64,000 nt of DNA from positions 28,441 through 92,440 of the forward strand of contig JARLJG010000020.1 of assembly GCA_031291325.1 (NCBI GenBank). The letters run 5' to 3'. The notes below the pieces were generated by a model that did not search any database, was not told where the DNA came from, and worked only from the letters and a program-made list of their open reading frames with translations. This document shows, piece by piece, positions 8,502 to 55,210 of the stretch (its first letter is position 1; the number at the start of each line of letters is the position of its first letter). The position numbers were made by a program, and so were the translations under genes. This DNA is from Burkholderiaceae bacterium. GTDB lineage: Bacteria > Pseudomonadota > Gammaproteobacteria > Burkholderiales > Burkholderiaceae_D.

Positions 8502-8960
8502 GTGAGCGACGCGCAAAAGTCCCCGCCGCCTTCCGTTCCCCCCGTCCCATTCCCCAGCGAGATTCCATTCCTGCACGATCTTGGTGTGGAATTTCTCGGA
8601 ATGGCCGACGGCGAGGCGCAAGTCGCGCTCAATCTTGAGCCACGGCATATGAATAGCTGGCAAGTGGCGCACGGCGGCGTGATCATGACGCTGCTCGATG
8701 TGGTGATGGCGATGGCCGGGCGTTCGCTCGACCCGGACGCGCGCGGCGGCGTGACGATTGAAATGAAAACCAGTTTCGTGCAACCGGGCGGGCATGCCGG
8801 CGGGCGCATCGTCGCCAAAGGCCATGCGTTTCATCGTTCTACCAGCATGTGTTTTTGCGAAGGCGATGTGTGGAACGGCGACAAGCTGGTGGCCAAGGCA
8901 ATGGGCACCTTCAAATACCTGCGGCGTCTGGATGTTGCCAAGAAGCTGGAGCACGAATAG
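8502..8960 (+). CDS. PaaI-type hot-dog acyl-CoA thioesterase
   Basis: Small hot-dog protein, 152 aa, with the PaaI-family pattern NSWQVAHGGVIMTLLDVVMAMA. The HGG and Asp of this segment form the active site in the family. It hydrolyses acyl-CoA esters, typically to release CoA from stalled intermediates. I start it at GTG 8502, with GAGG overlapping the SDR stop codon; the in-frame upstream ATG at 8406 would lie inside the SDR gene. It is the second protein of its fold type in the cluster if the gene at 12829 is counted. Confidence 0.88.
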   Translation: MSDAQKSPPPSVPPVPFPSEIPFLHDLGVEFLGMADGEAQVALNLEPRHMNSWQVAHGGVIMTLLDVVMAMAGRSLDPDARGGVTIEMKTSFVQPGGHAGGRIVAKGHAFHRSTSMCFCEGDVWNGDKLVAKAMGTFKYLRRLDVAKKLEHE

Positions 8961-9021
8961 CACGCGCGGCACGCGTGGAACGAACGACTCCTCGATAAAC
9001 AATTCTTGAAGCGAGATCGAT

Positions 9022-10014
9022 ATGACTACCTTTCAACGCATCGTGCTGGCATCGCGCCCGCACGGAGAAGTAAAGCCCGACAATTTTCGACTGGAAACCG
9101 TCGCGGTTCCAGCGCTGCAAGAGGGCCAGGTATTGGTGCGCAACCATTTCCTGTCGCTCGATCCGTATATGCGCGGACGCATGGAAGATGCCAAGAGCTA
9201 TGCCGCGCCGCAAGCCATCGACGCCGTGATGATCGGCGGCACGGCGGGCGAGGTGGTCGAGTCGCGCAATCCGCATTTCGCAGCCGGCGACAAGGTGGTC
9301 GGCATGCAGGGCTGGGCCGAGATGGGCGTGGCCGAAGGTTCGATGCTGCGCAAGGTCGATACCGCACATGTGCCGCTGTCGGCCTATCTGGGTGCGGTCG
9401 GCATGCCGGGCATGACGGCCTGGTACGGCTTGACCCAGATCATGCTGCCCAAGCCGGGTGAAACCATCGTCGTATCGGCGGCCAGCGGCGCGGTCGGCAG
9501 CGTGGTCGGACAGTTGGCGAAGCTGCGCGGTTGCCGCGCAGTGGGGATTGCCGGCGGCGCCGACAAGTGCGCGTACGTAGTGGACGAATTGGGCTTCGAC
9601 GCCTGCATCGACTACAAGGCCGGCAAACTGGTCGACGATCTGGCGGCGGCAACGCCGGACGGCGTCGATGCTTTGTTCGAGAATGTCGGCGGCCCGGTGT
9701 TCGACGCCGCGCTGGCGCGCATGAATCCGTTCGGACGCATCGCGTTATGCGGTTTGATTTCCGGCTATAACGGCGAGCCGATGGCGCTCAACAATGTGCG
9801 TCAGCTTTTGACCATGCGCCTGACGCTGCGCGGCTTCATCGTATCCGAACACATGGAGTTGTGGCCGCAAGGGCTGACCGAATTGGGCGGCCTGGTGGCG
9901 ACCGGCAAGTTGAAATTTCGCGAGTCGGTGGCGCAGGGATTGGCCGCCGCGCCGGAGGCATTTATCGGCTTGCTGAAGGGGAAGAATTTCGGCAAGCAAT
10001 TGGTCAAGATGTAG
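9022..10014 (+). CDS. NADP-dependent oxidoreductase, MDR superfamily (CurA/YncB-like)
   Basis: Zinc-free medium-chain dehydrogenase/reductase, 330 aa. The N-terminal LSLDPYMRGRM motif and the Rossmann motif SAASGAVGSVVGQLAK are characteristic of the leukotriene B4 dehydrogenase/curcumin reductase group. These reduce conjugated carbon-carbon double bonds with NADPH. In this cluster it could act as a 2-enoyl reductase handling unsaturated intermediates. GAGA lies before ATG 9022. The gap to the preceding thioesterase is 61 bp and the next gene begins 45 bp downstream, so one transcript is likely. Confidence 0.9.
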   Translation: MTTFQRIVLASRPHGEVKPDNFRLETVAVPALQEGQVLVRNHFLSLDPYMRGRMEDAKSYAAPQAIDAVMIGGTAGEVVESRNPHFAAGDKVVGMQGWAEMGVAEGSMLRKVDTAHVPLSAYLGAVGMPGMTAWYGLTQIMLPKPGETIVVSAASGAVGSVVGQLAKLRGCRAVGIAGGADKCAYVVDELGFDACIDYKAGKLVDDLAAATPDGVDALFENVGGPVFDAALARMNPFGRIALCGLISGYNGEPMALNNVRQLLTMRLTLRGFIVSEHMELWPQGLTELGGLVATGKLKFRESVAQGLAAAPEAFIGLLKGKNFGKQLVKM

Positions 10015-44922: not shown

Positions 44923-44953
44923 TTGACCCTGACGTAGTGTTAGGCTTTATAGT
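44923..44953 (+). promoter_or_regulatory. MerR-type promoter with 19-bp spacer (merR-ABC operon)
   Basis: TTGACC (44923-44928), a 19-bp spacer and TATAGT (44948-44953). The spacer holds the dyad CCTGAC-GTAGT-GTTAGG (one mismatch). Overlong spacers with a central dyad are the hallmark of promoters activated by MerR-family proteins through DNA untwisting. The MerR-TipAS gene begins 24 bp downstream, consistent with autoactivation. Confidence 0.8.
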
Positions 44954-44976
44954 CTGACATTGAAGGAGGGTTGGCG

Positions 44977-46020
44977 ATGCTGTTGAAAATCGGCGAATTG
45001 GCGAAGCGGATCGGCTTGACGGTCCGCACCCTGCATCATTACGACGCGATCGGGCTGGTGAAGCCTTCGACCCGCTCGGACGCCGGATATCGGCTCTACA
45101 ATCGGAACGACGTTGCCCGCCTGCATCGGGTTCAAGCCTTGCGCGGCCTGGGCTTGTCGCTGTCCGAGACTGGCGACATGCTGGCAGGCGACGGCGCCGA
45201 ATTGCATTCTGTCATTCGGCAACAGATTACCTCGCTGCAGCGGCAGATTTCGCAAGCCGTCGATTTGCGCGACCGGCTGCAAGCGATGGAAGCGCAACTG
45301 GCCGGGCCCGACGAACCCGATCTCGACGAATGGCTGTCGACGCTCGGCTTGATGACCACGCATCGCAAGTATTTCACCCCGGAAGAATTGGACATCCTGT
45401 ATCGGCGCAAGGATATCGGCAACGAGCTTGCGCAATGGACGCTTACAGTGGCCAAGATACGCGACCACATGGATCGCGGAATAGCGCCGCAAAGCAAAGC
45501 GGCGCAAGCGTTGGCTGCGACCTGGCTGGATTTGCAAAGGCGCATCACGGGCGACGACCCGCGCTTCTTCGTCAAACTGAGCACCATGCATCGGACCGAA
45601 TTCGACGTGCAGGCGTTGACTGGCGTCGATGGCGCCATGCTCGATTACGTGACGGCGGCGGTGCATGAATCGCGCTGCGAGAGCTACGCGCAGTATCTCG
45701 ACGCGCATGAGCTTCTCCACTACCGCCGCAATTTTCCCAAATGCATGCACAAGTGGCTGGAGATTTTTGCCGAAGCGCGGCAAATGCTGGAACAGCGCAT
45801 AGCGCCGGCAAGCGCCGACGCGCAGGCCATGTTCCACCGTTGGGAATTGCTGGCGCAGGCGACCTGGGGCAACGACCCGGTAACCCGGCACAAGGTGCGC
45901 GAGGCGCACCGGCTCGATTCGAGCCTGCTGGCCGGCTCCGGGATGACGCCGGACTTGCAGGCCTACGTCTCTCAAGGCATGGCCGTCTATACATCCAATT
46001 CAATGTCGAAAATGAAGTGA
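44977..46020 (+). CDS. MerR-family regulator with TipAS-type ligand domain
   Basis: 347-aa activator. The N-terminal MerR helix-turn-helix reads KIGELAKRIGLTVRTLHHYD (about 4-23), with wing residues AGYRLYNRNDVARL. A coiled coil is at about 75-110. The C-terminal region (about 120-330) resembles TipAS/antibiotic-recognition domains in length and position (a KYFTPEELDILY-like start), duplicated in part. AAGGAGG lies before ATG 44977. It is the first gene of a five-gene run, 15 bp ahead of the ABC ATPase, so it likely switches on its own operon when it binds a drug-like or peptide-like ligand. Confidence 0.88.
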   Translation: MLLKIGELAKRIGLTVRTLHHYDAIGLVKPSTRSDAGYRLYNRNDVARLHRVQALRGLGLSLSETGDMLAGDGAELHSVIRQQITSLQRQISQAVDLRDRLQAMEAQLAGPDEPDLDEWLSTLGLMTTHRKYFTPEELDILYRRKDIGNELAQWTLTVAKIRDHMDRGIAPQSKAAQALAATWLDLQRRITGDDPRFFVKLSTMHRTEFDVQALTGVDGAMLDYVTAAVHESRCESYAQYLDAHELLHYRRNFPKCMHKWLEIFAEARQMLEQRIAPASADAQAMFHRWELLAQATWGNDPVTRHKVREAHRLDSSLLAGSGMTPDLQAYVSQGMAVYTSNSMSKMK

Positions 46021-46035
46021 TTTTTTGGAGGCAGC

Positions 46036-46743
46036 ATGTACCCAGTCGTTCTCAAGCATGTCGGCAAGACCTATCACCTGGACGCCGTCGATGTGCCGGC
46101 CTTGGTCGATATCAACCTGGAAATCCGCTCCAATTGCTTTACCGTGATCTCGGGGCCGTCCGGCAGCGGCAAGACCACGTTGCTGAACCTGATCGGCTGC
46201 ATCGATCGGGCTAATCAGGGCGAGATCGTGGTGGCGGGGCAGGAAGTGCAAAAGATGTCGGACGATGCGTTATCCGATTTTCGCGCGCGCCACCTCGGCT
46301 TCATTTTTCAGAATTTCAACTTGCTGCCGGTGTTGAGCGCCTATGAAAACATCGAATACCCATTGTTGCTGACTAAAATTCCCGCTGCCGAACGCAAGCA
46401 GCGCGTGCTGGCATTGCTGGATGCGGTCGGTCTGGCGGATCGGGCGCAGAACCGTCCCGGTCAACTATCCGGCGGGCAGCGGCAGCGGGTGGCGATTGCG
46501 CGCGCGTTGGCGACCGAGCCGAAACTGGTGCTGGCCGACGAGCCGACCGCCAACCTCGACAGCCACACCGGCGCGGCGATCATCGCGCTGATGCGCAAGA
46601 TGCAGCGCGAGCATCATGTGTCCTTCGTGTTTTCGTCGCACGATCCGCAGGTGCAGGCTGAAGCCGACGATGCGATCTTTATCCGCGACGGTCGTATCAC
46701 GCATGTCGAACGCCGCACCGACAACGTGGAGCTTACTGCATGA
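46036..46743 (+). CDS. ABC transporter ATP-binding protein, LolD/MacB-type
   Basis: 235-aa ATPase with Walker [10 protein letters not shown], the Q-loop in [20 protein letters not shown], the signature [14 protein letters not shown], Walker [13 protein letters not shown] and the switch His in SSHDPQ. This composition is typical of the MacB/LolD group that powers mechanotransmission rather than direct translocation. GGAGGC precedes ATG 46036. The stop overlaps the permease start by four bases. Confidence 0.94.
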
Positions 46744-48128
46744 AAACCATTTCCCTCGCACTGCGCAATCTGTTGCGCAATCGGCGCCGTTCGCTGACTA
46801 CGCTATTGGCGATGACCATCGGCCTGGTGGCGATCCTGGTGTTCGGCGGGTACAAGTCCAATATCACTTACGGCACCGAGACCGGCTTCGTGCAAGCCTA
46901 TGGTCATTTGCAAATTCAGCACAAGGACTATTTCATCGAAGGCGGCGACAATCCGACTGCCTACGGCATCGCCGATTACCAGCGCATCATCGATGCGGTC
47001 AAGCGCGATCCGGTTCTGGCGCCGATGTTGACGGTGGTCACGCCAGCCTTACAATTGGGCGGCATTGCCGGCAACTTTTCCGCCGGCGTTTCGCGCTCGG
47101 TGATGGCTTCGGGCGTGGTTGTGGAGGATTACAACCAAATGCTGTTATGGAACGATTACGGCCTGAAAAGCTATGCGCTGCCGCTGCCGCTGGTCGGTTC
47201 CAGCCCGGACGCGGTGGTGATCGGCACCGGCGTTGCGCGCAAGTTGAAACTGTGCAATGCGCTCCAGGTCCCGAACTGCACGCAAACCGCAACGGTCGCC
47301 GTCGCCGAAGGCAAGTCGGCGCCGGACGATATCGCCGCCTTGTCCGCGCAGGAAAAAGCTGCCGCGCCGGCCCAGGATGACAACCGCATCGAGATGTTGG
47401 CGGCGACCGCGCATGGCGCCCCCAATGTCGCCAGCCTATCCGTGGTCAAGGCCAAGAACATGGGCTACAAAGCGGTCGACGACATGTATCTGGCAATGCA
47501 CTTGGCGCAGGCGCAGAAGCTGATCTACGGTTCCGAGCAGCCGCAGGTCACAGCTATTGACATACAATTGCGCCATACCGACCAGATGCCCGTGGCGCGG
47601 GGACGCCTGACGCAGCTGCTGGCGACGCAATTCCAGGACCAGCCGCTGGAAGTGCTGGATTTTCGGAAGCTTAACCCGATGTTTGGGCAGACCGAGCAAT
47701 TCATGAATTCGATGTTCGGATTCATTTCGATCCTGATCGGCGTCATTGTGTTGTTCACGATCGGCAATACGATGAGCACCGCCGTGGTGGAGCGCACGGT
47801 TGAGATCGGCACCTTGCGCGCGATCGGTTTGCGGCGCTCCGGCATCCGGCGTTTATTTCTGTGCGAGGGCGTGCTGTTGGGCTTGATCGGTTCGATATCC
47901 GGCGTGTTGTGCGCATCGTTCATCGCCTACTTGATCAACCATAGCGGCTTGTCGTGGACGCCGCCCGGCTACTCGTATGCCTACCTCATTCTGGTTAACG
48001 TATGGCAAGATCCGCATTTGGTCTTCGGCAGCGTGGTCGGATTGATTATCGTGACCGTCGTCTCCGCCGGGATGCCGGCCAACCGCGCGTCGAAGCTGAT
48101 GATCGTCGATGCATTGCGTCACGTTTAA
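46740..48128 (+). CDS. FtsX-family ABC transporter permease (LolC/E-like)
   Basis: 462-aa inner-membrane permease: one N-terminal helix (about 18-40), a periplasmic domain of about 280 residues, and a C-terminal FtsX domain with three helices that includes VERTVEIGTLRAIGLRRSGI. The periplasmic part contains a Cys pair (KLCNALQVPNC), perhaps a disulfide, and a long Ala/Asp-rich loop. MacB and LolC/E have this topology. With the ATPase it forms a homodimeric or single-permease mechanotransmitter. It overlaps the ATPase gene and is 12 bp from the LolA-like gene. Confidence 0.92.
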   Translation: MKTISLALRNLLRNRRRSLTTLLAMTIGLVAILVFGGYKSNITYGTETGFVQAYGHLQIQHKDYFIEGGDNPTAYGIADYQRIIDAVKRDPVLAPMLTVVTPALQLGGIAGNFSAGVSRSVMASGVVVEDYNQMLLWNDYGLKSYALPLPLVGSSPDAVVIGTGVARKLKLCNALQVPNCTQTATVAVAEGKSAPDDIAALSAQEKAAAPAQDDNRIEMLAATAHGAPNVASLSVVKAKNMGYKAVDDMYLAMHLAQAQKLIYGSEQPQVTAIDIQLRHTDQMPVARGRLTQLLATQFQDQPLEVLDFRKLNPMFGQTEQFMNSMFGFISILIGVIVLFTIGNTMSTAVVERTVEIGTLRAIGLRRSGIRRLFLCEGVLLGLIGSISGVLCASFIAYLINHSGLSWTPPGYSYAYLILVNVWQDPHLVFGSVVGLIIVTVVSAGMPANRASKLMIVDALRHV

Positions 48129-48140
48129 GAGGAAATATTG

Positions 48141-48920
48141 ATGAAACCCTGGATCAAAAATTTGGCTGCATTTGCTGTTTTCGGCATGGCGATCGGCTTG
48201 GCAAACGCCACCCCGTCGGCGCAGGAAATTCTCGCCGCCAGCGATTTGGTGCGCAACCCCGATTTTCCGTTCGGCATGACCAATACCCTGGTCGAATACC
48301 GCAACGGCAAACAAACCGACAGCAGCACCTTGGGCATCTATTCCAAGGCGGATAACAAGAGCGGGCAGTTCCGCAGCCTGATCCGCTATCTGGCGCCGGT
48401 GCGCGACGCCAACAAGCTGATCCTGTACAGCGGCAAGGATTTGTGGTTCTACGACCCGTCCAGCAAGGCCAGCATCCGCCTGTCGCCGCAACAGCGCCTG
48501 CTCGGCCAGGCTTCCAACGGCGACGTGGTGACCATCAACCTGGCCAAGGATTACCAAGCCACCGCCGCAGTGGAAGAAGATACGCAAGACGGCGATCGGC
48601 AAACCAAGCATTGCTACAAGTTGACGCTGGGCGCCGCCACGCCGGACGCGACGTATCATCATATCGACATGTGGGTCGAAGTGGCGAATACGCATCCGGT
48701 CAAGGCGCGCTTCTATACAGAAAGCGGCAAGCTGTTGAAGAGCGCCTATTACCGTCATTATCAGAATGTGCTGGGCAGCGATCGTCCGACCGAAACAGTC
48801 ATCATCGACGGCCTCGACCCGAATTGGGTCACGGTGATGCGTTTCTCCGACTGGATCAAGCGCGACGTGCCGGAAACCTGGTTGCAACGCGATTATCTGC
48901 CGCACTTCAAGCCCGAATGA
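48141..48920 (+). CDS. LolA-like periplasmic lipoprotein-sorting-type protein
   Basis: 259 aa with a signal peptide (NLAAFAVFGMAIGLANA). The mature part has the half-barrel pattern of the outer-membrane lipoprotein-sorting family (LGIYSKADNKSGQFRSLIRY and ILYSGKDLWFYDPSSK). True LolA is shorter, and its gene is usually not in an ABC operon, so this is a dedicated paralogue. It probably carries a hydrophobic cargo across the periplasm from the FtsX-type permease. AAGAGGAAATATTG precedes ATG 48141; the next gene overlaps its stop. Confidence 0.85.
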   Translation: MKPWIKNLAAFAVFGMAIGLANATPSAQEILAASDLVRNPDFPFGMTNTLVEYRNGKQTDSSTLGIYSKADNKSGQFRSLIRYLAPVRDANKLILYSGKDLWFYDPSSKASIRLSPQQRLLGQASNGDVVTINLAKDYQATAAVEEDTQDGDRQTKHCYKLTLGAATPDATYHHIDMWVEVANTHPVKARFYTESGKLLKSAYYRHYQNVLGSDRPTETVIIDGLDPNWVTVMRFSDWIKRDVPETWLQRDYLPHFKPE

Positions 48921-50221
48921 TGCGCCGCCCGATGACCTGGAAGCGGGCTGCCATCGCAGCGGCGATCCTGCTGGCGACCGGCGCGGCGCAGGCCGCCGAA
49001 GACCCCGATGCCGGCGCGTTGATGCTGGCCGACCAGACGCCGACCACGGTCGAAAAAAGCAGCGATTGGAGAGTCTTCGTCGAAGGCGCCTACGGCGGCG
49101 ATACCGTGCGCAACCAGTCGACGGGGCAAGAGACGCGCCAGTCGAATCATCGGCTGTCGTTCGACGCGCAACTCGACGATACTTTCGCGCCGGGCTGGCG
49201 CGCCGTATTGTCCGACCGCCTGGACGTCGATTGGCCGCCGCAAAGCGGGGAGCAGAACAGCATCAACACGATCCGCGAAGCCTATCTCAGTTGGCAGCCG
49301 CAGAGCAACGAGATCGTCGATTTCGGTCGCATCAATCCGCGTTACGGCGTTGCCACCGGCTATAATCCGACCGACTTTTTTCGCACCGGCGCGGTGCGCT
49401 CCGAGGTGTCGGTCGACCCCAACAGCTTGAAGCAAAACCGCCAGGGCAGCGTGATGTTGCGCGGGCAAACCTTGTGGGAAGGCGGTTCCTTGACGGCGCT
49501 GTATGCGCCGAAACTGAGCAAGCAGCCGGACGCCAACGACTTCAATCCCGACTGGGGCGCAACCAACAATCAAAACCGCGTGCTGGTCGCATTGAGCGAA
49601 AAATTCAATGACCACGTCAATCCGCAATTCCTGATATACAAGGCGCAGGATGCGTCGACCCAGCTCGGCTTCAACCTGACCGACTTGCTCAACGACAGCA
49701 CGGTGGTGTTCGTCGAATGGTCGGGCGGGCACAGCGCGACGCTGCTAACGCAAGCGTTCGATCAGCACGGATTGCAGCGCGCCGACGATAACGCATTCCG
49801 TAATCGTTTGTCGACCGGATTGACCTATACCACTGCCAACAAGATTTCGTTGACCGGCGAACTCGAATACAACGGCGCAGGTCTCGACCAAAGCGACTGG
49901 ATTGCATTGGGTCACGGCTCGCTGCCGGTCTACGGGCTGTATCGCAACTGGCTGCAGATCGGGCAAGAGTCGCCGACCAAGCCGGCGCTATTCTTTTACG
50001 GCATGTGGCAAGACGCGCTGATCAACCATCTCGACCTGAGCGCGATGGAACGCTATGACGCGGCAGACTACAGCCGCTTGACCTGGCTGGAAGCGCGCTA
50101 CCACGACAAGCATGCCGAGTATGCATTGCAGTGGCAGCGCTACAGCGGCAAGGTTTGGAGCGATTATGGCGCAGTGCCGCAGGTCACGGGCTGGGATGTG
50201 GTGGCGCGCTACTACTTTTGA
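48917..50221 (+). CDS. Predicted outer-membrane beta-barrel protein of the ABC operon
   Basis: 434 aa with a signal peptide (AAIAAAILLATGAAQAAED). Alternating strands continue to a C-terminal DVVARYYF, with a terminal Phe as in outer-membrane barrels. The region INPRYGVATGYNPTDFF resembles DUF1302-type and other alginate/lipid-transport barrels; I do not recognise the family firmly. It overlaps the LolA-like gene (ATG 48917 around the TGA), so the two are co-translated. By context it is the outer-membrane exit or receptor of the transport route. The open frame extends far upstream in the wrong frame of the LolA-like gene and is not used. Confidence 0.8.
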   Translation: MMRRPMTWKRAAIAAAILLATGAAQAAEDPDAGALMLADQTPTTVEKSSDWRVFVEGAYGGDTVRNQSTGQETRQSNHRLSFDAQLDDTFAPGWRAVLSDRLDVDWPPQSGEQNSINTIREAYLSWQPQSNEIVDFGRINPRYGVATGYNPTDFFRTGAVRSEVSVDPNSLKQNRQGSVMLRGQTLWEGGSLTALYAPKLSKQPDANDFNPDWGATNNQNRVLVALSEKFNDHVNPQFLIYKAQDASTQLGFNLTDLLNDSTVVFVEWSGGHSATLLTQAFDQHGLQRADDNAFRNRLSTGLTYTTANKISLTGELEYNGAGLDQSDWIALGHGSLPVYGLYRNWLQIGQESPTKPALFFYGMWQDALINHLDLSAMERYDAADYSRLTWLEARYHDKHAEYALQWQRYSGKVWSDYGAVPQVTGWDVVARYYF

Positions 50222-50291
50222 GCGCTTGAACAGATTCATGCATGTGCGCAATGCTGAAATGTAGCGATTTCAGCATTGCGCTGGTTCTTTA

Positions 50292-50927
50292 CTAAATCCA
50301 GCCCAAGACCCCGGCAAACAGTGCCAGCGCGACGCCGACCCCGCCAGCCAGCGACGCCACGACCGTGATTTGCGATTTGCGCGAGCGCATATCGTGCACC
50401 CAGTAGGCGACGACGAAGAACGGCAGGTAGCCGATCAAGAAAATCAGCCAAGGTGCGCCGGCATTCCAGCCGCGCCAATCCCAGGTCAGTGCGCCGATAT
50501 GATTGAGCCAGACTTCGACGCAGACGCACAGGATCGAATTGACGACCGCCATCACCCAGCGATTGTCGATCCCGGCAATCTTGAGATTGCGGTCGGGCGG
50601 CAACATGCGCACGGTGGCCAGCCCCATGAGCGCAAACATGAAACTGATTTCGATATTCAGCCCAATCAAAATCGTATAGGCCGAGCCGCCGGGCGTTCCC
50701 CAAACCGGGGCGAATCCGGAAAAGTGGAACACCAGGCCGTTCCAGATTTCATTGACCCAATCCATCAGCCAGAAAGCGAGTCCGGCCAGCACGACATTCC
50801 AGCGCTTTTCTGCGGCCTGTTCCGCGTAGGCGTAGACGACGATCAACAGCAGCGCGATCGCATACCATTGAAAATGCGACGAATCGCGAACCAATTGCTG
50901 CGCTTGTGCAGCCGATGCTGTCATCAT
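50292..50927 (-). CDS. Polytopic membrane protein of unknown function
   Basis: 211 aa with about six predicted transmembrane helices (for example AIALLLIVVYAYAE, YTILIGLNIEISFMFALMGL, LIFLIGYLPFFVVAYWV, VVASLAGGVGVALALFAGVL). Trp-rich loops (WVNEIWNGLVFHFSGF, LTWDWRGWN) recur. I do not recognise a family. GGAGACTTC precedes ATG 50927. It stands alone, convergent with the barrel gene, and its function cannot be inferred. Confidence 0.75.
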   Translation of the reverse strand: MMTASAAQAQQLVRDSSHFQWYAIALLLIVVYAYAEQAAEKRWNVVLAGLAFWLMDWVNEIWNGLVFHFSGFAPVWGTPGGSAYTILIGLNIEISFMFALMGLATVRMLPPDRNLKIAGIDNRWVMAVVNSILCVCVEVWLNHIGALTWDWRGWNAGAPWLIFLIGYLPFFVVAYWVHDMRSRKSQITVVASLAGGVGVALALFAGVLGWI

Positions 50928-54569: not shown

Positions 54570-54600
54570 TTGACCCTTCCGCAACGTGAGGCCCTACACT
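54570..54600 (+). promoter_or_regulatory. MerR-type promoter with 19-bp spacer upstream of the DUF1579 gene
   Basis: TTGACC (54570-54575), a 19-bp spacer and TACACT (54595-54600). The spacer carries CCTTCCG...CGTGAGG, an imperfect dyad whose half-sites (CCTnnCG) resemble those at 44923. It is 73 bp before the DUF1579 start. It is the second promoter of this kind in the window and may be activated by the same MerR-TipAS protein. Confidence 0.65.
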
Positions 54601-54673: not shown

Positions 54674-55210
54674 ATGACGGAACAGGCCAAGCAAGCGCCG
54701 CAAATTCCCCCTGAAGTATTGCGCTATCTCAACGGTGCGCCGCCCGAAAGCCGGCAATTCGATTTCCTGATAGGCGATTGGAATGTCGCGAGTACGCGCT
54801 ATCACGCGGATGGCTCGGTCCTGATGCAATACAACGCGAGATGGAGCGCCAAACACCTGAACGGCGGCAGCATGATCGTCGACGATTTCCAGATGCTCGC
54901 GCCGACCGGGCAGGAGGTATCGTCCTATGTTACTCTGCGTACCTATTGCGAATCGACCGGGCGGTGGGAAATGGCAGGGTTATCCGCGCTGCAACCGGCA
55001 GTCAATGCGGAGTGGTATGGACAATGGCAAGACGGCGAGATGCGCGTGGATGTCGTTGGCGCCGCGCCCGACGGTGGTATTTATAGAAACCGGATTCTTT
55101 TTTTCAATATCCAGGAAAGCAGCTTCGAATGGGAAAGCAATATCAGTCGGGACGACGGCGTTACGTGGCTGGGTGCAGTTTTAATGCTTGCAACTCGAGC
55201 AATGCTATAG
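54674..55210 (+). CDS. DUF1579-family protein
   Basis: 178 aa. FLIGDWNVASTRYHADGSVL and later WESNISRDDGVTW identify the DUF1579/beta-barrel-like family of unknown function, often found in detoxification or regulatory neighbourhoods. No signal peptide is seen, so it is likely cytoplasmic. AAGGGATAAGTC precedes ATG 54674. The upstream promoter has MerR-type 19-bp spacing, which suggests ligand-induced expression together with the 45-50 kb operon. It overlaps nothing; the HD-domain gene starts 22 bp downstream. Confidence 0.8.
   Translation: MTEQAKQAPQIPPEVLRYLNGAPPESRQFDFLIGDWNVASTRYHADGSVLMQYNARWSAKHLNGGSMIVDDFQMLAPTGQEVSSYVTLRTYCESTGRWEMAGLSALQPAVNAEWYGQWQDGEMRVDVVGAAPDGGIYRNRILFFNIQESSFEWESNISRDDGVTWLGAVLMLATRAML

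What the first reader, a model, noticed from the sequence alone, without database searches (positions are those of the whole stretch)
44923..50221. MerR-TipAS-controlled envelope transport operon: ATPase, FtsX permease, LolA-like carrier and outer-membrane barrel
Five tightly packed genes give every step of a route from the inner membrane through the periplasm to the outer membrane. A dedicated LolA-like protein and beta-barrel sit beside a LolCDE/MacB-like transporter, under a ligand-sensing MerR-TipAS activator with a MerR-type 19-bp-spacer promoter. Classical Lol systems are housekeeping and are not drug-regulated. The cargo may be a lipid, lipoprotein or toxic amphiphile.
Basis: partly seen in the sequence, partly recalled or inferred. 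Interest (0 to 1): 0.72.

Follow-up and report, generated by a model that had tools for sequence, protein, structure and literature searches.

The report
Drug-sensing switch on Lol-like exporter
Five adjacent bacterial genes, likely one operon, join a relative of a known antibiotic-capturing switch protein to an ABC-type pump, a LolA-like carrier and a predicted outer-membrane barrel, which together would likely move a greasy small molecule out of the cell when the switch senses it.

Summary
Window 44977-50221 carries five same-strand genes with gaps of 15, -4, 12 and -4 bp: a MerR-TipAS regulator, an ABC ATPase, an FtsX permease, a LolA-like protein and a protein predicted to be an 18-strand outer-membrane barrel.

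The regulator is AlbA-type (tandem TipAS; E 1.3e-23 to the albicidin-binding AlbA) with AlbA-type promoter geometry: 19-bp spacer and palindromic operator, found before 71 of 84 such regulators. Only 7 of 19 albicidin-contact residues are kept, so its ligand is probably not albicidin.

The four transport genes are an older unit: all four are found in 48 of 51 loci. Other copies lie beside AraC- or LytTR-type regulators, and a minority lie in polyketide or nonribosomal-peptide clusters. The permease carries an insert with an invariant cysteine pair at the position of LolC's hairpin. The genome has separate housekeeping Lol genes.

Best reading: ligand-induced export of an amphiphilic small molecule, working like Lol without being Lol. 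Cargo, ligand and direction are inferred. New variant of a known kind.

The parts
44923..44953 (+). MerR/AlbA-type promoter: -35 TTGACC (44923-44928), 19-bp spacer, imperfect palindrome CCTGACGT-A-GTGTTAGG (44928-44944), -10 TATAGT (44948-44953), 23 bp before the start codon
   Evidence: Sequence; pattern before 71 of 84 AlbA-type regulators; A and T of the -10 at 19-bp spacing invariant in those 71
44977..46020 (+). AlbA-type MerR regulator with tandem TipAS drug-binding domain (347 aa)
   Evidence: Pfam MerR and TipAS; PDB 6h95 AlbA over residues 125-338, E 1.3e-23
46036..46743 (+). ABC ATPase, LolD/MacB-like, below the LolD equivalog cut-off (220.4 of 307.75 bits)
46740..48128 (+). Type VII (FtsX/MacB/LolE-fold) permease, 4 long predicted helices of TM type and a large periplasmic domain
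47253..47390 (+). Permease insert (residues 172-217) with Cys172, Cys180 and DIAALS at 197-202, at the position of LolC's hairpin: candidate carrier-docking arm (inferred)
   Evidence: Both Cys in 31 of 31 cassette permeases aligned, absent from 4 of 4 distant ones; alignment with own LolC/E
48141..48920 (+). LolA-like periplasmic carrier (PF17131), signal peptide by look
   Evidence: PDB 3buu (NE2245) E 4.6e-34
48917..50221 (+). Predicted 18-strand outer-membrane barrel, OprD/AlgE-like fold, signal peptide by look, C-terminal Phe
50246..50281 (.). 15-pair inverted repeat, candidate terminator between the operon and the convergent gene 50292-50927(-)

Best explanation
This is an AlbA-type, ligand-sensing regulator placed in one likely operon with a four-gene Lol-like cassette, and it would likely switch on export of an amphiphilic small molecule across the whole envelope. 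Proposed steps: (1) the molecule enters the Trp-lined tunnel of the regulator (inferred from AlbA); (2) the bound regulator activates its own 19-bp-spacer promoter and so raises itself, as a sponge, and the four genes behind it (promoter shown by conservation, activation inferred); (3) the ATPase and a homodimer of the permease extract the molecule from the inner membrane by the type VII mechanism (fold predicted, action inferred); (4) the LolA-like protein docks on the permease's insert and takes the molecule in its greasy cavity (inferred); (5) it hands it to the OprD/AlgE-like barrel, which lets it into or through the outer membrane (inferred). The cassette goes with different regulators in other bacteria and in some of them lies in polyketide or peptide gene clusters (neighbourhood shown, service inferred).
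For: Regulator: AlbA match; conserved operator; in the own genome no second site with fewer than 2 mismatches. An MFS gene 53-64% identical to that behind L119's regulator follows 7 of the 80 scanned regulators (L007, L008, L009, L013, L015, L020, L021); L119's is MFS by Pfam. These regulators lie near the cassette-headed ones in the tree, so in this group the partner is repeatedly an exporter. Window, L090, L005 and L006 regulators form a set with SH-aLRT 99.

Cassette: all four genes in 48 of 51 loci (window); two of the other three are cut by contig ends. Insert marker in 31 of 31 aligned.

Cargo: biosynthetic neighbours in G180 and G137 (HpaB close upstream, PLP enzyme overlapping downstream) and G417 (two NRPS proteins about 100 bp upstream); on plasmids of Paraburkholderia ginsengisoli (PKS, P450, PPTase) and Aliiroseovarius (KS, ACP, AMP-binding), and, with more distant cassettes, of E. 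coli G8, Rahnella, Klebsiella and Enterobacter.

Housekeeping Lol genes are separate. Type VII transporters are described as extracting membrane-embedded molecules for periplasmic partners (PMC12646458, passages).
Against: No biosynthetic genes lie by the window operon (neighbours include GFA, CheW and CoA-transferase genes). Among 50 Burkholderiales cassette loci a marker search found clear biosynthetic genes in only 3, and the marker set held proteins of two of those three loci, so it is no independent test of enrichment. Most of the 80 scanned regulators have neither cassette nor that MFS gene (71 of 80). The regulator is absent from both same-genus genomes sampled (G065 and G037, 68% and 86% complete). 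The permease fold is nearer LolE than MacB, which suits lipids or lipoproteins as well. Of the six plasmid cassettes with biosynthetic neighbours, four lack the two-cysteine insert. Nothing here shows cargo, ligand or direction; one transcript is read from gaps alone.
Confidence: 0.53

Rival explanations
1. Envelope-repair route: the cassette carries a lipid or a special lipoprotein to the outer membrane, and the AlbA-type sensor turns it on because the sensed drug damages the envelope.
Against: ATPase and permease fail the LolD and LolC/E equivalog cut-offs; biosynthetic neighbours in several lineages; related regulators precede MFS genes; housekeeping Lol genes exist separately.
Confidence: 0.26
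2. The regulator works only as a self-induced sponge, as AlbA does in Klebsiella, and the cassette behind it is a passenger expressed by read-through.
For: The pairing is seen in only five genomes; AlbA is described as a self-regulatory sponge (PMC10189885, passages).
Against: Short gaps in four of five cases (15 bp in the window; about 30, 50 and 80 bp in L090, L005, L006), with no terminator-like site in the window gap; tree neighbours of the regulator precede an exporter gene.
Confidence: 0.12
3. MacAB-TolC-like tripartite efflux pump that borrows a TolC and an adaptor encoded elsewhere, the LolA-like protein being an accessory.
For: ATPase scores 210.5 bits to MacB and the fold family is shared.
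Against: No adaptor or TolC gene among the five window genes; ATPase and permease are separate proteins; carrier and barrel are found together with them in 48 of 51 loci.
Confidence: 0.05

Closest known systems
AlbA of Klebsiella (PMC6078987, PMC10189885; passages read)
   Same: MerR HTH plus tandem TipAS-like ligand domain; own promoter with 19-bp spacer and palindrome; tunnel Trp 27, 56, 133 and 162 (AlbAS numbering) kept in the window protein
   Different: AlbA's operator was found once in the K. oxytoca genome, at its own gene; here the regulator heads a transport cassette. Only 7 of 19 albicidin-contact residues are kept.
LolCDE-LolA-LolB lipoprotein route
   Same: [quoted passage not shown] a single permease gene, as in LolF-type systems
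   Different: Family cut-offs not reached; no LolB-type gene among the five; a dedicated barrel; a ligand-domain regulator
Borrelia BBJ23-29 (PMC13078400; abstract and passages read)
   Same: Homodimeric type VII ABC transporter, LolA-like carrier and outer-membrane barrel in one cluster; non-polar cargo proposed, not identified
   Different: Omp85-type barrel and TPR proteins there; OprD/AlgE-like barrel here; other regulation
Aryl polyene ApeL/M/N route (PMC8253772; passages read)
   Same: LolA-like carrier proposed to serve transport of a specialised metabolite to the outer membrane
   Different: Energised by an RND protein, with a LolB-like protein; no ABC transporter or barrel in the part of the gene table that I saw
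MacAB-TolC
   Same: Type VII ABC transporter that exports drugs
   Different: Adaptor and TolC duct instead of soluble carrier and barrel

Membership tests
AlbA-type MerR-TipAS regulators | MerR HTH plus tandem TipAS-like ligand domain | tested here: met
   MerR_1 E 4e-18; TipAS, two stretches; AlbA over 214 residues, E 1.3e-23
AlbA-type MerR-TipAS regulators | Own promoter with 19-bp spacer and palindrome | tested here: met
AlbA-type MerR-TipAS regulators | Residues that contact albicidin | tested here: not met
   7 of 19 identical in the window; F16, N24, N75, Y169, W195 and Q205 kept in 0 of 5 cassette-headed regulators. AlbA-type by architecture, not an albicidin protein by contacts
AlbA-type MerR-TipAS regulators | Binds a drug and activates transcription | not testable with these tools
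   -
Lol (LolCDE) | Scores over LolD and LolC/E equivalog cut-offs | tested here: not met
   LolD 220.4 of 307.75 bits; LolCE 63 of 362.45 bits
Lol (LolA) | PF03548 LolA | tested here: not met
   Carrier hits PF17131 and no PF03548; the genome's one PF03548 match is on C41
Lol (LolCDE) | LolE-like permease fold | tested here: met
   [not shown]
Lol (LolCDE) | Transports lipoproteins | not testable with these tools
   -
MacAB-TolC | MacA-type adaptor and TolC in the operon | tested here: not met
   No such family among the five proteins
AlgE / OprD barrels | 18-strand barrel fold | tested here: met
   [not shown]
AlgE / OprD barrels | Sequence match to a curated family | tested here: not met
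   No Pfam or NCBIfam hit up to E 1
Borrelia BBJ23-29-like clusters | Omp85-type barrel | tested here: inconclusive
   Model matches OprD/AlgE-type barrels; an Omp85 match was not sought by itself

The most novel reading that the evidence does not exclude
The cassette is a dedicated carrier-relay route for amphiphilic antibiotics and other natural products: a type VII ABC pump that hands its cargo to a soluble LolA-type carrier and then to an OprD/AlgE-like barrel, instead of pushing it through an adaptor and TolC. Producers keep it inside biosynthetic clusters; the window bacterium has put it under an AlbA-type sensor as an inducible defence against someone else's compound.
Probability: 0.32. 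Interest if true: 0.82.

Novelty: new variant of a known kind. Interest (0 to 1): 0.6.

Why it matters
The well-known drug pumps of Gram-negative bacteria cross the periplasm by a continuous duct. A ligand-controlled pump-carrier-barrel relay would be a second way to do it, and this operon joins sensor and route in five genes, so it can be tested. It also offers the AlbA family a transport partner, a structural marker (the two-cysteine insert) for finding more cassettes, and a pointer to cargo through neighbouring biosynthetic clusters.

Tried and rejected
Thiopeptide (TipA) reading: dropped because the ligand domain aligns over its length with AlbA. Albicidin as ligand: not supported by contact residues. 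Phage origin: no match of the carrier in phages. Anti-phage system: PADLOC gives a MerR-HTH match (mad1) and matches to the membrane part of CARF-LolE models, read as shared domains. Zeamine cluster as a known example: its listed transport genes are HlyD-, macrolide- and ABC-2-type, and the word lipoprotein does not occur in the text (PMC3547906, passages). All five cassette-headed regulators as one clade: not rejected (p-AU 0.128) and not shown. In the permease tree AlbA-headed cassettes lie among others. Biosynthetic linkage as a general rule: rejected for Burkholderiales (3 of 50). Order sample: 20 of 22 non-own places fetched; G447:C10 and G300:C9 left out. No barrel comparison beyond Foldseek's and VIA-align's lists was made.

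Print: ten searches. In their listings (69, 93 and 113 capped at 15 of 32, 12 of 58 and 20 of 71 papers) I saw no paper that joins an AlbA/TipAS regulator to such a cassette; I read passages of seven papers only (PMC10189885, PMC12144233, PMC6078987, PMC13078400, PMC8253772, PMC12646458, PMC3547906), and the library holds open PMC papers only.

Mended on checking: promoter coordinates, the MFS count, the number of uncalled regulators, and the Omp85 row; best explanation set from 0.55 to 0.53 and novel case from 0.33 to 0.32 because the marker search is partly circular; first rival from 0.25 to 0.26 for the same reason.
Full report
What is there. Five genes lie on the + strand from 44977 to 50221, with gaps of 15, -4, 12 and -4 bp. 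They encode a MerR-TipAS regulator, an ABC ATPase, an FtsX-type permease, a LolA-like protein and a protein without any Pfam or NCBIfam match. A 15-pair inverted repeat follows the last stop, and the next gene is convergent. One transcript is inferred from spacing.

Regulator. Residues 125-338 align with AlbA, the albicidin-binding protein of Klebsiella (E 1.3e-23). AlbA is described as a self-regulatory sponge whose promoter has a 19-bp spacer and an 8-1-8 palindrome found nowhere else in its genome (PMC10189885 and PMC6078987, passages read). The window promoter has this layout: TTGACC at 44923, 19 bp, TATAGT. The operator pattern stands before 71 of 84 AlbA-type regulators examined (shuffle rate 6e-5), and in those 71 the A and T of the -10 are invariant at 19-bp spacing. 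One of the 13 misses, L119, differs from the pattern by one base; the other 12 I did not look into.

Ligand. Of 19 residues named in the AlbA passages, 7 are identical in the window protein. Trp56, 133 and 162 are kept in 5 of 5 cassette-headed regulators and Trp27 in 4 of 5; F16, N24, N75, Y169, W195 and Q205 are kept in none (read without L119, which the script had grouped with them before its neighbourhood was known). The tunnel is likely kept and its ligand changed.

Regulator neighbourhoods. Two, a Burkholderiales MAG (L005) and Undibacterium sp. TS12 (L006), have the cassette directly behind the regulator; 78 do not. Seven others have an MFS gene behind (L007, L008, L009, L013, L015, L020, L021; 53-64% identical to that of L119; L119's scanned by Pfam). 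My gene finder called 69 of the 80 regulators; 24 of these 69 have a same-strand frame within 150 bp behind, some of them doubtful frames. In the regulator tree the window, L090, L005 and L006 proteins form a set with SH-aLRT 99, next to MFS-preceding ones; L092 lies apart.

Cassette. In 245 genomes of the family, 57 have a LolA-like match; close ones (53% identity or more) are at 29 places in 28 genomes. Of the 28 places besides the window, 26 have all four genes; L085 and L108 are cut by contig ends. The AlbA-type regulator is adjacent at L090 and at L092 (there after about 318 bp). In 399 genomes of the order, 20 have a match at E up to 1e-60, at 24 places; of 22 non-own places 20 were fetched, 19 have all four genes, L148 lacks a barrel match, and none has the regulator. 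With L005, L006 and the window this makes 48 of 51. At E up to 1e-80 the regulator is in 2 of those 399, the own genome and G515. The two same-genus genomes, both incomplete, lack the regulator; one of them (G065) has a cassette, nearest to the second one of the window genome on C17.

Other regulators of the cassette. Divergent AraC-type genes lie at L130, L131 and L137 (L097 only below the cut-off), and a LytS-type kinase with a LytTR regulator behind the barrel at L143. Similar pairs are seen by look at L136, L139, L141 and L142 and annotated in Plesiomonas and Vibrio HDW18. AlbA-headed cassettes are mixed with others in the permease tree.

Housekeeping Lol. The genome has one PF03548 LolA (C41) and one LolC/E over the cut-off (C73); the window, C17 and C58 permeases score 62, 76 and 107 bits against a cut-off of 362. 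LolB was not searched.

Cargo clues. In G180 and G137 the cassette lies between a HpaB hydroxylase (about 12 bp or less upstream) and a PLP enzyme (overlapping downstream). Within about 15 kb lie a UvrA-like gene, a methyltransferase and a tetrapyrrole-methylase-like gene (scanned in G137) and a B12 radical-SAM gene (scanned in G180). In G417 it lies about 100 bp behind two NRPS proteins. On plasmids, 27 records match the LolA-like protein. I read ten of the 27: one (E. coli 64A:C) had no annotation; of the other nine, six have polyketide- or fatty-acid-synthase-type genes beside the cassette (Paraburkholderia, Aliiroseovarius, Enterobacter, E. coli G8, Rahnella, Klebsiella) and three do not (Plesiomonas, Vibrio HDW18, Bdellovibrio). 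Enterobacter, Rahnella and Klebsiella look like one cluster type. Of the six, only Paraburkholderia and Aliiroseovarius share the two-cysteine insert. A marker search over 50 Burkholderiales cassette loci and 78 control loci gave clear hits in 3 (L111, L112, L148) and 0, and generic-looking hits in 2 and 5; the markers included proteins of L111 and L148 themselves, so this counts how common such neighbours are and does not prove enrichment. The window operon has no such neighbours.

Reading. An inducible export route for an amphiphilic small molecule explains the drug-type sensor, the exporter habit of its tree neighbours, the Lol-like mechanics and the biosynthetic neighbours elsewhere. Lipid or lipoprotein traffic under envelope stress remains the main rival. 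The nearest published parallel that I saw, Borrelia BBJ23-29 (PMC13078400), has another barrel type and an equally unknown cargo.

Noticed in passing
window 54570-54600: A second MerR-type promoter (TTGACC, 19-bp spacer, TACACT) before a 178-aa gene at 54674-55210 without Pfam match; 2 mismatches to the operator pattern, the best other match in the genome. It may belong to the same or another MerR regulator.
   Followed up: partly
G000:C17:127236-131383 (L104) and G000:C58 (L113): Two more ABC-FtsX-LolA-barrel cassettes in the same genome: C17 close (LolA 67%), C58 distant, without the two-cysteine insert.
   Followed up: partly
L104 4709-5605: The C17 cassette is preceded about 130 bp upstream by a 298-aa protein without Pfam match that looks like a second outer-membrane barrel.
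   Followed up: no
L092 4566-4732: The gap between regulator and ATPase holds a long inverted repeat (GGGCCCGCGCAGGAATAA ... TTATTCCTGCGCGGGCCC), overlapping an 85-aa frame, like a small mobile insert.
   Followed up: no
L114 and L115: Distant loci with two FtsX-permease-like stretches side by side next to a LolA-like gene.
   Followed up: no
L088 near 8528-9233: In G042 the cassette starts about 25 bp behind a gene that looks like tatC.
   Followed up: no
L170 42054-45485: The Aliiroseovarius plasmid carries, besides the cassette, a second LolA-like gene next to an MMPL transporter, close to the same biosynthetic genes.
   Followed up: no
L124, L125, L127, L111: The G137/G180 region (HpaB, a weak Trp-dioxygenase-like match below cut-off, B12 radical SAM, UvrA-like, tetrapyrrole-methylase-like) looks like a natural-product cluster with a UvrA-type self-protection gene.
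   Followed up: partly
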